Assembly: GCA_904373325.1 (NCBI GenBank)
Contig: CAJFFP010000016.1
Span: 56,310 to 120,309 of the forward strand
DNA: 64,000 bases
DNA from: Candidatus Gallimonas merdigallinarum
GTDB lineage: Bacteria > Bacillota > Clostridia > Christensenellales > Borkfalkiaceae
Direction of reading: 5' to 3'
In this document: piece by piece, positions 3 through 61,397 of the stretch
Position numbering within the stretch: position 1 is the stretch's first letter
Layout: the number at the start of each line of letters is the position of its first letter
Program-made: the position numbers and the translations under genes
Notes under the pieces: generated by a model
What the model saw: the letters and a program-made list of their open reading frames with translations, nothing else
What the model was told of the DNA's origin: nothing
Databases searched by the model: none

Positions 3-110
3 GGACTGCGCGACGAAAAGGTGTTCGGCGACCCGCGTGAAATTTTTGAGTTTTACGAGCAAAAGAAAGGTGCGCAGATTTTCCGTATTCATAATTTATT
101 TTATCGATAG
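3..110 (+). CDS. C-terminal end of an unrecognised protein (partial)
   Basis: An open frame enters from the left edge and ends with TAG at 108-110, giving the last 35 residues of a protein that ends IFRIHNLFYR. The tail is rich in charged and aromatic residues (DPREIFEFYEQKKG). I do not recognise the family from so little sequence. It points the same way as leuCDB. The leuC promoter lies about 30 bases downstream of its stop, so the two need not be co-transcribed. No clear terminator is visible between them. Confidence 0.5.
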   Translation, partial: GLRDEKVFGDPREIFEFYEQKKGAQIFRIHNLFYR

Positions 111-140
111 CCTCTATTCAATAATTCATTTTGCAAATAA

Positions 141-170
141 TTGACGGCAGTATAACATATATGGTATACT
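141..170 (+). promoter_or_regulatory. SigA-type promoter of leuCDB
   Basis: A -35 box TTGACG (141-146), an 18-bp spacer and an extended -10 (TGG before TATACT, 165-170) precede leuC. The predicted 5' leader is only about 26 bases long, so there is no room for a T-box or attenuator. This contrasts with leuA, which has a full T-box leader. Confidence 0.75.
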
Positions 171-202
171 CTTGTCAAACAAAACGAGTAAGGAGATTGC
201 TT

Positions 203-1459
203 ATGGCAATGACGATGACGCAGAAGATCCTTGCGGCGCACGCAGGACTTGACGCGGTAACGGCGGGCCAGCTGATCGTAGCCGATCTCGATATGGCGCT
301 CGCCAACGACATTACCGCGCCCGTCGCCGTAAAAGAGATGGAGAAAGTGGGCGGTCATGTAAAGTATCCCGACCGCGTCGCCCTCGTAATGGATCATTTC
401 ACGCCCAACAAAGATATTAAAGCGGCGTGTCAGGTAAAATGCACGCGCGAGTTCGCAAAGCGCGAACAGGTCAGGAACTTCTTCGACGTGGGGCGCATGG
501 GCATCGAACACGCGCTCCTGCCCGAACAGGGGCTTGTGGGCGCGGGCGACTGCGTGATCGGCGCGGACAGCCACACCTGCACCTACGGCGCGCTGGGCGC
601 GTTCTCGACGGGCGTCGGCTCTACCGACCTCGCCGCGGGCATGATGACGGGGCAGTGCTGGTTCAAAGTTCCCGCCGCCATCCGCTTCGTGCTCAAAGGC
701 GCTCTTCCCAAGTATGTGACGGGTAAAGACCTCATATTACATATCATCGGCATGATCGGCGTGGACGGCGCACTCTACAAGAGCATGGAGTTCACGGGCG
801 AGGGCGTTTCCTCCCTCTCGATGGACGACAGGTTCACCGTGTGCAACATGGCGATCGAGGCGGGCGCGAAGAACGGCATTTTCCCCGTGGACGAACAGAC
901 GCTCGCCTATATGAAGGGCAGATTCCAACGCCCCGTAAAAGTTTACGAGGCGGATGCCGACGCGGAGTATGAAAAGACGATCGAAATCGACCTCTCCGCG
1001 CTGAAACCCACCGTCGCGTTCCCCCACCTTCCGGAAAACACGAAAACGGCGTGGGAGAATATCCCCATCGAGCAGGTCGTCATCGGTTCGTGTACGAACG
1101 GGCGCATCTCCGATTTGCGGCAGGCGGCTGAGATCCTCGACGGCAGACAGGTCGCGGAAAATGTGCGCTGCATCGTCATTCCCGCAACGCAGGAAATCTA
1201 CTTGCAGGCGGTGCGCGAAGGACTTGCGGAGATCTTCGTCAAAGCGGGCGCGGTGCTCTCCACGCCCACCTGCGGACCCTGCCTCGGCGGGCATATGGGC
1301 ATTCTTGCGGACGGCGAAAAGTGCGTTTCCACCACAAACCGCAACTTTGTGGGGCGCATGGGACATATCACGAGCGAGATCTACCTCGCCTCCCCCTACA
1401 CGGCGGCGGCGAGCGCGGTGCTCGGCAGACTTGCTTCGGCTGAGGAGGTTCTCAAATGA
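203..1459 (+). CDS. leuC: 3-isopropylmalate dehydratase large subunit
   Basis: This is the large subunit of isopropylmalate isomerase, which converts 2-isopropylmalate to 3-isopropylmalate in leucine biosynthesis with a [4Fe-4S] cluster. The 418-residue length fits the short HacA-like LeuC class. Diagnostic segments are [20 protein letters not shown] near residue 125, the first cluster cysteine in VIGSCTNGR near residue 296, and the cysteine pair in [11 protein letters not shown] near residue 356. I chose the ATG at 203 because AAGGAG lies seven bases upstream; the frame is open further upstream but without a plausible start. The stop overlaps the leuD start (ATGA), so the two subunits are translationally coupled. 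Confidence 0.96.
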
Positions 1460-55124: not shown

Positions 55125-55528
55125 TTACTGCCCGTATTTTCGCTTGACGTTGAGCCTTGCGAGCGCGCGGGCGAGGCGCGCCTGCGCGGCGTGGTGCTCC
55201 TCGATGCTGCGGCGCTGCAAGAGCGCTTCCTTCGCCTCGTCCGCCTTGCGGCGCTGGCGTTCGGCGTCGATATCCTCGGGGCGGAGCGCGGAGTCCACCA
55301 GAACGAGCGCCTCGCCGTTTTCGATTTTCATGATGCCCGAAGCGACGGCGGCAACAAGCGTCTCCCCGTCGGGCGTGCGGAAGGTCAGCTCCCCGGGAAC
55401 GATGGCGCAGATGGTGTTGCAATGCCCCGCGAGTACACCGTATTCGCCGTCCAGCGTCGGCACGACGAGCGATTCGCAGTCGCCCTCGTAAAAGGGCTTA
55501 TCGGCGGCAAGCACGTGAAGCGGGAACA

Positions 55529-55529
<1 letters not shown>
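55125..55529 (-). CDS. atpC: ATP synthase epsilon subunit
   Basis: Epsilon is the central-stalk and regulatory subunit. At 134 residues it has the beta-sandwich half with VVPTLDGEYGVLAGHCNTIC and a helical C-terminal hairpin rich in Arg/Glu/Ala (about 86-134). It overlaps the atpD stop by one base and ends the operon. Confidence 0.95.
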
Positions 55530-57827
<2,298 letters not shown>

Positions 57828-57828
<1 letters not shown>

Positions 57829-59576
57829 CAGGCAGTCGCCCCCTCCCGCTTCCAGTCGGCGAGATATTCTTCGGAAAGGCGGCAGATGAGATCGCGCTCT
57901 TCGGGCGTCATTCTGCCCGTCTGCCCGATGCGCTCGCACAGATCGGCGGCGTGGACCTGAAAGTACGAAAGCAGTCCGGCGCGGAACCGCCCGATCTCGT
58001 CGAGCGGGATATCCTGCATGACGTGATGCAGCGCGGCGACGAGCAGGACGACCTGTTCGTGAAGCTGAAACGGATGATACTGCTGCTGACGGAGAATGCG
58101 CATGAGCCCCTGCCCGTAGCGGAGCTGTTTCTGCGTCGCTTCGTCGAGATCGGAGGAGAACTGCGTGAACACCTCCATTTCGCGGAACTGCGCGAGATCG
58201 AGACGGATCGCGCCTGCGGCGGATTTCATCGCCTTGGTCTGCGCGTCGCCGCCCACGCGCGAGACGGAAAGTCCCACGTTGACGGCGGGACGCTGCCCCG
58301 CGAAAAAGAGCGAGCTTTCCAGAAAGATCTGTCCGTCGGTGATGGAGATGATATTCGTCGGGATATACGCGGAGACGTCGCCGCCCTGCGTTTCGACGAT
58401 GGGGAGCGCGGTCATCGACCCGCCGCCCCGCTCGTCCGAGAGGTGCGCCGCACGCTCCAAGAGACGGGAATGCAGATAGAACACGTCCCCGGGATACGCC
58501 TCGCGCCCGGGCGAACGCCCGAGAAGCAGACTGAGCGCGCGGTAGGCGACGGCGTGTTTGGAGAGATCGTCGTAGACGATGAGCACGTCCTTGCCAAGCT
58601 CCATGAAATATTCGCCCATGGCGCAGCCCGCATAGGGCGCAATATACTGCATGGAGGCGGATTCGCCCGCCGATGCGCTGACGACGATGCAGTATTCGAG
58701 CGCGCCGCGGGTGCGGAGCGCTTCCATGAGCTGCGCCACGGCGCTCGCCTTCTGCCCGATGGCGACGTAGATGCAGATGACGTCCTTCCCGCGCTGATTG
58801 AGAATGGTATCGAGCGCGATCGCCGTCTTGCCCGTCTGTCTGTCGCCGATGATGAGTTCGCGCTGTCCGCGCCCGATGGGGAACATACTGTCGATGGCGA
58901 CAAGCCCCGTTTCGAGCGGACGGTTGACGGGCTGGCGGTCGATGATGCGGGGCGCGGCGACCTCGATGGGACGGTATCCGTCCGCGCCGATGTCACCTTT
59001 GCCGTCGATGGGCGCGCCGAGCGCGTTCACCGCCCTGCCCAGAAAGTTCTTGCCGACGGGCACGCCCGCCGTCTTTTTCGTGCGGTGCACGGAGCTTCCC
59101 TCCGAGACCTGTTCCTCGTCCCCGAACAGAATACAGCCGACGCTGTCGCGCCTGAGATCCTGCACCATGCCGCGCACGCCCGAGGAGAACTCCACGATCT
59201 CCCCGTACGAGACGCGCCCAAGCCCCGTGACGGCGGCAACGCCGTCGCCGACGGAGACGACCGTTCCGAGCTCTTCCGAGACGGCTTTGGGCGACCATGT
59301 CCGCACCGCGTCCCCCAGCATGGGGATGACGTCGCCGTTCTTTTTGGGAACTTCGGTGAGCGCATCTTTGAGCTGACGGAACCTGCCGTTGACGCTCCAA
59401 TCGTACACTTCCGCGCCCACTTCGAGGCGGAATCCGCCCGGGAAGGCGTCGCTCTTCACGAAATCAAGCGCAACTTCGCCGCCGTACTTTTTGCTCAGAA
59501 AGGCGCGGAAGCGCTCCTCCTGCGCCTTTGTAGGCGGAGCCGCCGCGTATAATTTTGCGCGAATGGGTTCATTCAT
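57828..59576 (-). CDS. atpA: ATP synthase alpha subunit with fused delta C-terminal-like domain
   Basis: This is a 582-residue protein. Residues about 90-582 are a complete alpha subunit (VSVGDGVAAVTGLGRVSYGE; P-loop GDRQTGKTAIAL at 244-255; VGLSVSRVGGDAQTKAMKS). Residues about 5-75 instead match the C-terminal domain of the delta subunit: AAPPTKAQEERFRAFLSKKY, then FPGGFRLEVGAEVYDWSVNG, equivalent to delta's GG-x-x-x-x-x-G-x-x-x-x-D-x-S motif. No separate atpH exists between atpF and atpA. The ATG with GGAGAAG overlaps the atpF end. See findings for stoichiometry. Confidence 0.93.
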
Positions 59577-60066
59577 CTTTCTTCTCCGCTTGCGCGTCGT
59601 CGGCGGCGTCTAAAAACTGATCGAACGCTTCGGACGCGGTGTCTTCCAATACGATCTTCTCCACCGCATCCGTCACGATGGAGGCGATCTCGGCGCGCGC
59701 CTCCTTTGTGGCTTGCGCCTTGATGCGAGCGGCGTCCTTGCGGGCGTCTGCTACGATGGTTCGTGCCAATTCGTCTGTTTCCCTGCGCATACGCTCGCTG
59801 TACTCCGCCGTCTCCTTTTCGGCAAGGCGGCGTTTTTCAGCGATCTCGTCCTCTGCACCCGCAAGTTTTTGCTCGTACGCGGCGCGTTTTTCCTCCGCTT
59901 CCGCGTTCTTTTTCTCGGCATCGGCATCCATCTTCTCGTAATGCTCTCTCCGTTTTTGCATAAAGGAACGCACGGGCTTGTAGAGAAGAAGCCACAGCCC
60001 CGCGAACAAAATGACAAAATTGAGAAGATGCAGCAAAATCTGCTGCCAGTCGATATTTAAAGGCAT
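59569..60066 (-). CDS. atpF: ATP synthase b subunit
   Basis: This is the peripheral-stalk subunit. At 165 residues it has one N-terminal membrane helix (ILLHLLNFVILFAGLWLLLY) and a long Glu/Lys/Ala-rich coiled coil. Normally delta's C-terminal domain binds the b C-terminus; here that domain is encoded by the next gene, fused to alpha. It overlaps atpA by eight bases. Confidence 0.93.
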   Translation of the reverse strand: MPLNIDWQQILLHLLNFVILFAGLWLLLYKPVRSFMQKRREHYEKMDADAEKKNAEAEEKRAAYEQKLAGAEDEIAEKRRLAEKETAEYSERMRRETDELARTIVADARKDAARIKAQATKEARAEIASIVTDAVEKIVLEDTASEAFDQFLDAADDAQAEKKDE

Positions 60067-60078
60067 GACTGCCTCCCC

Positions 60079-60525
60079 TTACAGGACGAATATGACGAGA
60101 ATTGCGACGATCAGCGCATAAATGATCGCCGTCTCGATAAATACAAGCCCGAGCATGAGCGTGGAACGGATCTTCCCCTCCGCCTCAGGCTGGCGCGCGA
60201 TCGCCTCGGACGTCTTCGCCACGGCGATGCCCATGCCCGCTGCGCCTGCGCCCGCGGCAAGCCCGATGGCAATGCCCGCGGCAAGCGCCTTGAATCCTGC
60301 GGAATCATCCGCCGTATCCTGCGGCGCGGCGGTATCCGTCTCGGACGCCGCTTCCGCGTCTGCGGTCTGCTCCGCGTCGACGTTCTCCGCCGCCACGGCG
60401 ACCGTGTCCATGACCTGCATATCATTCTGCCCGCCGCTCAGTCCCACTGCGAGCAGAACCGCCAGAATCACCGCCAGCACGACGCCGATCATGACGAACA
60501 TTTTCTTTCTTCCAATCGTTTTCAT
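60079..60525 (-). CDS. atpE: ATP synthase c subunit with N-terminal membrane segment and acidic linker
   Basis: The 148-residue protein is about twice the usual length. Residues 78-148 are a normal c hairpin, with GAGAAGMGIAVAKTSEAIAR, the RQPE polar loop, and the ion-binding glutamate in GLVFIETAIIYALIVAIL. The sodium-type glutamine in helix 1 is replaced by Met, so proton coupling is likelier. Residues 1-77 are extra: a basic start and a hydrophobic helix (MFVMIGVVLAVILAVLLAVG), then an acidic Asp/Glu/Ala/Thr linker. The ATG at 60525 has AGAGGTAAC upstream and overlaps the atpB stop, so the extension is translated. Confidence 0.9.
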   Translation of the reverse strand: MKTIGRKKMFVMIGVVLAVILAVLLAVGLSGGQNDMQVMDTVAVAAENVDAEQTADAEAASETDTAAPQDTADDSAGFKALAAGIAIGLAAGAGAAGMGIAVAKTSEAIARQPEAEGKIRSTLMLGLVFIETAIIYALIVAILVIFVL

Positions 60526-61397
60526 ACCGTTACCTCTGTTTCCGATTTGTTGTTTTCTTCCTGTTTGCCGCGCGCCCGACGACTGCGCTTCGGCTTTTTG
60601 ACGTGCAGCTCGCTCACTTCGCCGTAGAAGAGCGAAGTCAGCATGGTGAGCACGTACGCCTGAATCACCGCGTGGAGCACCGTGAAGAGAATGCCGACGA
60701 TGACGGGCAGCACGAACGAGAGCGCGAGATAGTAATACACAAGCTCCGTGACCAGCATCCCGCTCAGCAGCGCGCCGAACATACGGAAGCTCATCGAGAT
60801 GGGCAGCGAGAACTCTTTGAGCGTACGCCCCACGCCGCGCAGTCCGTTGGAGACGATGCCTCCTCCCAAAATGACGAGGTAGGAAAGACACCCCAGCGAG
60901 ATCGCCCCGTTGATGTCGGAAAGCGGCGCGGGAAGAATGACCGACTGCCCCGCCATGGACACCGCGGGCACGCCCACAAGCTCGAACAGCGTGCTGACAA
61001 AGATGTACGCGCCCGCCGCGAATACGTACGCGCCGAGGAAATGATTCCTGTGCGGGCTGTTGGACTTTGCGAGTCCGTCGAACATCCCCACCGCCTGTTC
61101 CAGAAGCATCTGAAATTTCCCGGGAACGAACTTGAAACGCGGAATGACGAAGATGCGCACGATCGCCGCGAATACGAGAATGACGCCCGTTACCACGAAC
61201 GCGGAGATCAGCCCGGGATTGACGGGCAACCCGAACAGGGAAATTTTATCCCCTTCGTGCAGAACGGCGTCCTGCATCGCGTCCTGAATGGACCCCTCTT
61301 TCTGATAGAGCCCGTCCGTCAGGACGATCCCGACGATCAGCGCGGCGATCACGGCGGCGACGACGGTGAGAAAAATACAAGTCTGTTTTTTTGTCAT
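60522..61397 (-). CDS. atpB: ATP synthase a subunit
   Basis: This is the stator proton channel. At 291 residues it has the conserved arginine helix in ISMSFRMFGALLSGMLVTEL, NGLRGVGRTLKEFSLP, and the last helix HAVIQAYVLTMLTSLFYGEV. The C-terminus carries an unusual basic then acidic cytoplasmic tail (KKPKRSRRARGKQEENNKSE). The ATG at 61397 follows GGAGGGAGC. It is the first gene of the operon; no atpI is seen. Confidence 0.94.
   Translation of the reverse strand: MTKKQTCIFLTVVAAVIAALIVGIVLTDGLYQKEGSIQDAMQDAVLHEGDKISLFGLPVNPGLISAFVVTGVILVFAAIVRIFVIPRFKFVPGKFQMLLEQAVGMFDGLAKSNSPHRNHFLGAYVFAAGAYIFVSTLFELVGVPAVSMAGQSVILPAPLSDINGAISLGCLSYLVILGGGIVSNGLRGVGRTLKEFSLPISMSFRMFGALLSGMLVTELVYYYLALSFVLPVIVGILFTVLHAVIQAYVLTMLTSLFYGEVSELHVKKPKRSRRARGKQEENNKSETEVTV

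What the first reader, a model, noticed from the sequence alone, without database searches (positions are those of the whole stretch)
57828..59576. ATP synthase delta C-terminal domain fused to the N-terminus of alpha, no stand-alone delta
AtpA residues ~5-75 match the delta C-terminal domain, whereas the family alpha begins about residue 90. The operon runs a-c-b-[delta-alpha]-gamma-beta-epsilon with overlapping genes, so no atpH fits. Canonical F1 has three alpha and one delta. A fusion would give three delta-type domains per enzyme, and delta's N-terminal domain, which normally binds the alpha N-termini, is gone. The peripheral stalk must attach in a new way: one of three equivalent domains binds b, or all three do.
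Basis: partly seen in the sequence, partly recalled or inferred. Interest (0 to 1): 0.8.

Follow-up and report, generated by a model that had tools for sequence, protein, structure and literature searches.

The report
Delta-alpha fusion in ATP synthase
In this bacterium the ATP-making enzyme has lost half of its delta subunit and carries the other half fused to its alpha subunit, the same design that was recently engineered in the laboratory to give an ATP synthase up to three side stalks, and many related bacteria have it or a variant of it.

Summary
On the minus strand (59576..57828) one 582-aa frame encodes the delta C-terminal domain (residues 5-73, Pfam OSCP positions 103-172, E=4.4e-9) followed by AtpA. 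Gene order is a-c-b-[delta-alpha]-gamma-beta-epsilon with no room for atpH. No other OSCP match was found in the genome, which is 92.6% complete.

The architecture is not new. Ueno et al. 2025 (PMC12229609; [quoted passage not shown] The engineered chain 9jc1 is the top structural match to the window protein, collinear over both domains.

New here is the scale and the variants. In the window's order, 101 of 120 atpA loci examined lack the delta N-terminal domain: fused, stand-alone mini-deltas, tandem domains, and b'-delta-alpha triple fusions. Two Butyrivibrio genomes carry the fused enzyme beside a canonical one.

Most likely each alpha offers a b2 docking site, so one to three stalks can bind. 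The natural stalk number is untested; a one-stalk enzyme with idle domains remains a serious rival.

The parts
57828..59576 (-). fused delta-CTD::AtpA gene, 582 aa, start ATG at 59576
59358..59564 (-). delta (OSCP) C-terminal domain, residues 5-73; predicted strand-helix-strand-strand-strand-helix
   Evidence: Pfam PF00213 103-172; delta-CTD profile E=2e-21; AlphaFold2 ten-residue blocks from 11 to 70 have mean pLDDT 79-87
59283..59357 (-). junction, residues 74-98: short linker plus helix 83-93 at the place of the usual alpha N-terminal helix
   Evidence: TIGR00962 begins at residue 82
57831..59282 (-). AtpA core, residues 99-582 (barrel, nucleotide-binding and C-terminal domains)
   Evidence: PF02874, PF00006, PF00306; TIGR00962 731 bits
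60522..61397 (-). AtpB, subunit a
   Evidence: PF00119, E=2e-16
60079..60525 (-). AtpE, subunit c, with a signal-peptide-like N-terminal extension of about 75 residues
   Evidence: PF00137, E=1e-14 (run on 60079-60528)
59569..60066 (-). AtpF, subunit b (165 aa); its end overlaps the fusion start by 8 bases
   Evidence: PF00430, E=1e-15
56929..57828 (-). AtpG, subunit gamma
   Evidence: PF00231, E=1.5e-90 (run on 56929-57834)
55529..56932 (-). AtpD, subunit beta
   Evidence: PF00006, E=6e-75
55125..55529 (-). AtpC, subunit epsilon
   Evidence: PF02823, E=1e-19

Best explanation
[quoted passage not shown] Shown: the fused frame, the absence of the N-terminal domain and of any other delta found, an ordinary length of b, and selection on the domain. 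Inferred: each of the three alphas presents one docking site; b2 binds it by the canonical delta-CTD interface; with no N-terminal domain on the threefold axis, one to three b2 stalks, each bringing an a-subunit, can attach to one F1. More a-subunits per ring raise the H+/ATP ratio and let the enzyme make ATP at low pmf, which would suit an anaerobic fermenter. The coupling ion is probably H+, inferred from the c-subunit motif.
For: Domain and operon anatomy. The engineered PS3 delta-deltaN::alpha has the same plan and nearly the same length (580 against 582 aa): phmmer aligns window 7-563 with 9jc1_I 6-565, the only one of 60 listed chains whose alignment starts before residue 79. Foldseek ranks 9jc1 chains 1, 2 and 4 over 565-572 columns, while the other 47 listed chains align over 469-507. 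That enzyme showed 0, 1, 2, 3 stalks in 15, 51, 26, 8% of particles, about two a-subunits by SDS-PAGE, and H+/ATP 5.8 against 3.0. No internal-start signal: 16 of 139 linkers have ATG plus SD>=4 against 12.6 expected, 2 against 4.4 at SD>=5. In 8 loci read from relatives (seven of genus g104, one of g118) the alpha frame begins with a b-type membrane strand; Pfam ATP-synt_B matches 7 of the 8 (two over the cut-off) and OSCP all 8, and a separate b gene lies upstream in all 8. There every alpha is tied to the membrane, so three anchored strands per F1 follow unless the chain is cut. In Butyrivibrio the fused operon's c looks H+-type while the canonical operon's c looks Na+-type (motif reading recalled).
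Against: No direct evidence on natural stoichiometry. The operon has one a and one b gene and b is not lengthened (median 162 residues in 137 CTD-fused loci, 164 in 21 full-delta loci). Full-length delta::alpha fusions exist in 13 of 80 named loci: these also carry three delta copies although only one N-terminal domain can sit on the axis, so three copies need not mean three stalks. The engineered enzyme averaged 1.26 stalks in cryo-EM and its ATP-driven proton pumping was lower. Of the triple fusions only L129 is in the tree, on a long branch at the base of the window's half, so it is not a close relative. L129's own b' has no Pfam ATP-synt_B match at E<=0.1. The AlphaFold2 model has low-confidence stretches inside alpha and its match to 9jc1 has rmsd 6 A, so it shows the same fold and order of domains, not the same pose.
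Confidence: 0.55

Rival explanations
1. One-stalk enzyme. All three alphas carry the domain, but only one binds a b2 stalk because a or b supply, membrane packing or asymmetry limits it; the other two domains are idle or stabilise the crown. The fusion is a way of keeping delta attached after its N-terminal domain was lost.
For: Fused full-length delta::alpha exists, and there three stalks look unlikely. Stand-alone mini-delta genes in 34 loci without Ns at the junction show that the domain is also kept untethered. In the engineered enzyme one stalk was the commonest class, 51%.
Against: The engineered analogue accepts two and three stalks with nearly identical sites. The b'-delta-alpha forms put three membrane strands on one F1.
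Confidence: 0.35
2. Mixed alphas: processing or internal initiation makes some alpha without the domain, so that F1 keeps about one delta-CTD.
For: Would restore the canonical 3:1 stoichiometry; a few linkers hold ATG plus an SD-like site (16 of 139).
Against: That is near chance (12.6 expected); ATG codons are fewer in linkers than in control stretches (0.71 against 1.02 per linker); no start in the window's linker has an SD-like site. Proteolysis was not testable.
Confidence: 0.07
3. Artefact or decaying gene: chance similarity, an assembly join, or a non-functional enzyme.
For: The genome is an incomplete assembly in 38 contigs; one named locus (L234) did show an assembly artefact at the junction.
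Against: The same fusion in 9 of the 10 same-genus relatives that have an OSCP match over the cut-off and in 64 of 80 named loci; purifying selection; invariant P-loop and other alpha motifs over 48 fused proteins.
Confidence: 0.02

Closest known systems
Engineered delta-deltaN::alpha FoF1 of Bacillus PS3 (Ueno et al. 2025, PMC12229609; PDB 9jc1)
   Same: Delta CTD fused to the alpha N-terminus, delta NTD absent, no separate delta; collinear in sequence and predicted fold.
   Different: Engineered, epsilon C-terminal domain removed; the window is natural, keeps the epsilon long-helix domain (PF00401, 25.1 bits against a cut-off of 24.6), and its c has a long N-terminal extension.
Natural delta-alpha fusion of Acidaminococcus fermentans (and UniProt G4Q3K6, A0A1I2C5T3) noted in the same paper
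   Same: Operon with delta-alpha fusion lacking the delta NTD, as the paper's discussion says.
   Different: I did not have those sequences; whether they belong to the same branch as the window is not tested.
Mycobacterial b-delta fusion (e.g. PDB 7jg5 chain d)
   Same: Its C-terminal part resembles the window domain, weakly (E=0.007); stalk parts fused into one chain.
   Different: Delta is joined to b, not alpha, in a chain of 445 aa. The b'-delta-alpha of family f11 combines both ideas. That it is present once per enzyme is recalled.
N-ATPase
   Same: No separate delta subunit, as a passage of PMC5706428 states; its b model matches the window domain weakly (TIGR03321, E=0.0017).
   Different: There b is the long chain; the alternate-F1F0 alpha model stays below its cut-off here (602.1 of 750.5 bits).

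Membership tests
delta-deltaN::alpha fused F1Fo (Ueno-type) | delta CTD fused in frame to the N-terminus of alpha | tested here: met
delta-deltaN::alpha fused F1Fo (Ueno-type) | delta N-terminal domain absent, no separate atpH in the genome | tested here: met
   PF00213 finds only positions 97-172 at one place in a 92.6% complete genome
delta-deltaN::alpha fused F1Fo (Ueno-type) | more than one peripheral stalk and a-subunit can bind | not testable with these tools
   needs the purified complex
delta-deltaN::alpha fused F1Fo (Ueno-type) | raised H+/ATP ratio | not testable with these tools
   needs proteoliposomes
canonical F1Fo ATP synthase | a, b, c, alpha, beta, gamma, epsilon present in one operon | tested here: met
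canonical F1Fo ATP synthase | separate two-domain delta | tested here: not met
N-ATPase | match to the alternate-F1F0 alpha model above its cut-off | tested here: not met
   TIGR03324 602.1 bits, cut-off 750.5

The most novel reading that the evidence does not exclude
A large natural class of multi-stalk ATP synthases exists in anaerobic Clostridia. Loss of the delta N-terminal domain opened the threefold axis, and evolution then explored fused, unfused, doubled-CTD, doubled-b-end and b'-delta-alpha forms; in the last, three membrane-anchored stalks per F1 are built in. The number of stalks bound, not only the c-ring size, sets the H+/ATP ratio.
Probability: 0.45. Interest if true: 0.87.

Novelty: new member of a known kind. 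Interest (0 to 1): 0.63.

Why it matters
Ueno et al. state that all ATP synthases known so far have a single a-subunit; their engineered fusion broke that rule (PMC12229609). This window and its kin show that the same gene design, and stronger versions of it, is common in a clostridial order and present in cultured strains of other families. That makes the question whether multi-stalk ATP synthases with high H+/ATP ratios occur in nature directly testable. [quoted passage not shown] the link is my inference).

Tried and rejected
Chance similarity or fragment: rejected by profile scores, the control and selection.

Internal start giving free alpha: scanned 139 fused genes, no excess over control windows.

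N-ATPase filing: rejected, alpha model below cut-off.

Missing atpH hidden elsewhere: not found. In the order sample only G071 shows a full delta beside a reduced one, and there each lies beside its own alpha.

The AlphaFold2 model of the triple fusion (L289) was poor (pLDDT 54, eight rows) and was not used. The L234 'stand-alone' case was set aside as an assembly artefact (Ns at the junction); it is still counted as CTD_sep. Rows L267-L274, second copies of loci already present, were dropped before the tree (226 to 218 rows). Six of 126 order alphas (G217, G193, G250, G281, G270, G155) were not fetched; one search gives five of them fused-length frames and G155 a short one.

The tree is FastTree with local supports only; fused/separate needs 14 changes (9 forced by starred branches) and NTD presence 6 (4 forced). 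I draw no firm order of events from it.

The phylum sample has OSCP in 208 of 249 genomes; eight of them (window included) have a best E weaker than 1e-17. I did not examine the other seven, and the match list was cut.

Literature. Searches for natural delta-alpha, truncated delta or multi-stalk enzymes; some searches asked about butyrivibrio energetics. I opened seven papers, mostly passages: PMC12229609, PMC5706428, PMC4478896, PMC6131620, PMC7793690, PMC11026938, PMC5709465. Of what I saw only PMC12229609 describes the fusion; I saw nothing on stand-alone mini-delta, tandem CTD or b'-delta-alpha. The held library is open-licence PMC only, most listed papers were seen as listing entries, and supplements could not be read.

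Full report
WHAT IS THERE. The finding's coordinates hold one minus-strand gene, 59576..57828, of 582 aa. Pfam matches residues 5-73 to OSCP positions 103-172 (E=4.4e-9, over the curated cut-off), then the three AtpA domains. NCBIfam TIGR00962 takes over at residue 82. Upstream lie a, c and b, downstream gamma, beta and epsilon, all matched by Pfam. Genes overlap or almost touch (c-b gap 12 bases; b and the fusion overlap by 8), so there is no space for atpH. In the whole genome of the window (1.56 Mb, 38 contigs, 92.6% complete) PF00213 finds only this place at E<=10. Residues 1-74 are predicted as strand-helix-three strands-helix, followed by helix 83-93 where alpha's own N-terminal helix would be.

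IS IT REAL. The domain is not a chance match. A profile grown from relatives gives 2e-21. Of 226 rows none has a match both inside and outside the alpha frame, and the 30 rows with a separate full delta have none in alpha. Single-sequence similarity to solved delta chains is weak (best E=0.006), but 11 of 13 listed chains are of delta type. Among 12 close relatives (66 pairs) the domain has mean pN/pS 0.40 against 0.28 for alpha, so it is kept by selection although it changes faster than alpha. Of 36 same-genus genomes, ten have an OSCP match over the cut-off, three only a weaker one and 23 none; nine of the ten have the same fusion, and the tenth (G027) has a stand-alone double-CTD gene.

PRIOR ART. 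Ueno et al. 2025 (PMC12229609; I read the abstract, the Discussion, section 10 and passages) made this architecture in Bacillus PS3 by deleting delta residues 2-104 and fusing the rest to alpha. Cryo-EM classes had 0, 1, 2 or 3 stalks in 15, 51, 26 and 8% of particles (1.26 on average), SDS-PAGE suggested about two a-subunits, and H+/ATP was 5.8 against 3.0. The authors conclude that the delta NTD limits the stalk number to one by sitting on the threefold axis. They also point to a natural fusion without the NTD in Acidaminococcus fermentans and to two UniProt entries, and call verification open. The window protein aligns end to end with the engineered chain 9jc1_I (window 7-563 to 6-565), and 9jc1 chains are ranks 1, 2 and 4 of the Foldseek search over 565-572 columns, where the other 47 listed chains align over 469-507 (rmsd about 6 A, mean pLDDT 79). 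So the window is a natural member of a kind already named in print.

DISTRIBUTION. In an even sample of 248 genomes of the window's order, 125 have AtpA and 125 have an OSCP match, the same genomes by eye. I fetched 119 of the loci; with the window that is 120 of 126: CTD fused to alpha 66, CTD stand-alone 32, full separate delta 19, two CTDs fused 1, two CTDs stand-alone 1, b'-CTD-alpha 1. Thus 101 of 120 lack the delta N-terminal domain. They include Butyrivibrio hungatei, Pseudobutyrivibrio xylanivorans, Agathobacter ruminis, Faecalibacterium gallinarum and Acutalibacter. These 80 are the best-scoring part, not a fair sample. Of 14 of these genomes searched whole, eight hold both a separate full delta and a fused frame (in one, G284, the fused match is below the cut-off), five only a fused frame, and one only a separate delta. 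The closest named record is an uncultured Clostridia bin at 87% identity. I did not learn the order's name.

VARIANTS. (1) Mini-delta: 34 loci without Ns at the junction have a stand-alone CTD gene, 66-86 aa from the first M, with two of 131 aa holding two copies; 15 of the 34 have an alpha start with SD>=4. (2) G280 (L114, same family as the window) has two CTDs before alpha, and its b has a longer tail; L124 and L137 have b with a clearly duplicated C-terminal end. (3) In L129, L284, L286, L287, L288, L289, L291 and L292 the alpha frame (739-791 aa) begins with a b-type membrane strand, then the CTD, then alpha. Pfam OSCP matches all eight over its cut-off; ATP-synt_B matches seven at E 4e-8 to 6e-4, two of them over the cut-off, and L129 not at all. 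A separate b gene lies upstream in all eight. By frame length G330 (second operon), G355 and G359 look alike but were not read. (4) Full-length delta fused to alpha. On a FastTree tree of 218 alpha cores the reduced forms and their kin group in one clade of 190 (support 99) that also holds 15 full-delta rows; one further mini-delta (L067) lies outside it. NTD presence needs 6 changes and fusion 14.

MECHANISM. Shown: a CTD on the alpha chain, no sign of internal initiation, ordinary b length, invariant alpha motifs. Inferred: three docking sites per F1, b2 bound by the canonical interface as in the engineered enzyme, hence one to three stalks and a-subunits. The b'-delta-alpha form supports this, since every alpha there is tied to the membrane, but it is not a close relative of the window. 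The full delta::alpha fusions speak against reading three copies as three stalks. I therefore give 0.55 to the multi-stalk reading and 0.35 to a one-stalk enzyme.

ROLE. The c-subunit of the window and of the fused Butyrivibrio operons lacks the polar residue that I recall as a Na+ ligand, while the canonical Butyrivibrio operon's c has a Na+-like motif (for the other canonical operons searched I found no c in the stretch held, except L267). A review passage says that butyrivibrios have one H+- and one Na+-dependent ATP synthase (PMC11026938, citing Schoelmerich 2020, which I could not read). I infer that the fused enzyme is the H+ one. The window's genome also has a V/A-type ATPase D subunit, as do 75 of 121 order genomes sampled, so the fused F-type enzyme need not be the only rotary ATPase. 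Which one makes ATP is unknown.

VERDICT. The window alone is a new member of a known kind; the order-wide series, above all the triple fusion and the free mini-delta, is what I did not find in print (searches, open-licence PMC only).

Noticed in passing
window 60079-60525 (-): Subunit c has a signal-peptide-like N-terminal extension of about 75 residues, acidic and Ala-rich; the median extension is 46 residues in 135 CTD-fused loci against 9 in 20 full-delta loci.
   Followed up: partly
G000:C8:4186-4764 (L275), same genome outside the window: V/A-type ATPase subunit D, so the organism seems to have two kinds of rotary ATPase.
   Followed up: no
L129, L284, L286-L289, L291, L292: b'-deltaCTD-alpha triple fusions with a separate b gene upstream, seven in one genus (g104) and one in g118.
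   Followed up: partly
L124, L137 (and less clearly L114, L138): Subunit b with a duplicated C-terminal end (self-alignment scores 130 and 116; 53 and 29 for the weaker two).
   Followed up: partly
L067 (G279): A stand-alone mini-delta in an operon whose alpha groups with canonical full-delta enzymes, an apparently separate loss of the N-terminal domain.
   Followed up: partly
L243 and L240/L242: Full-length delta is fused to alpha in one and separate in its sister rows (Onthocola against Mediterraneibacter), so the fusion can be gained or lost over short distances.
   Followed up: no
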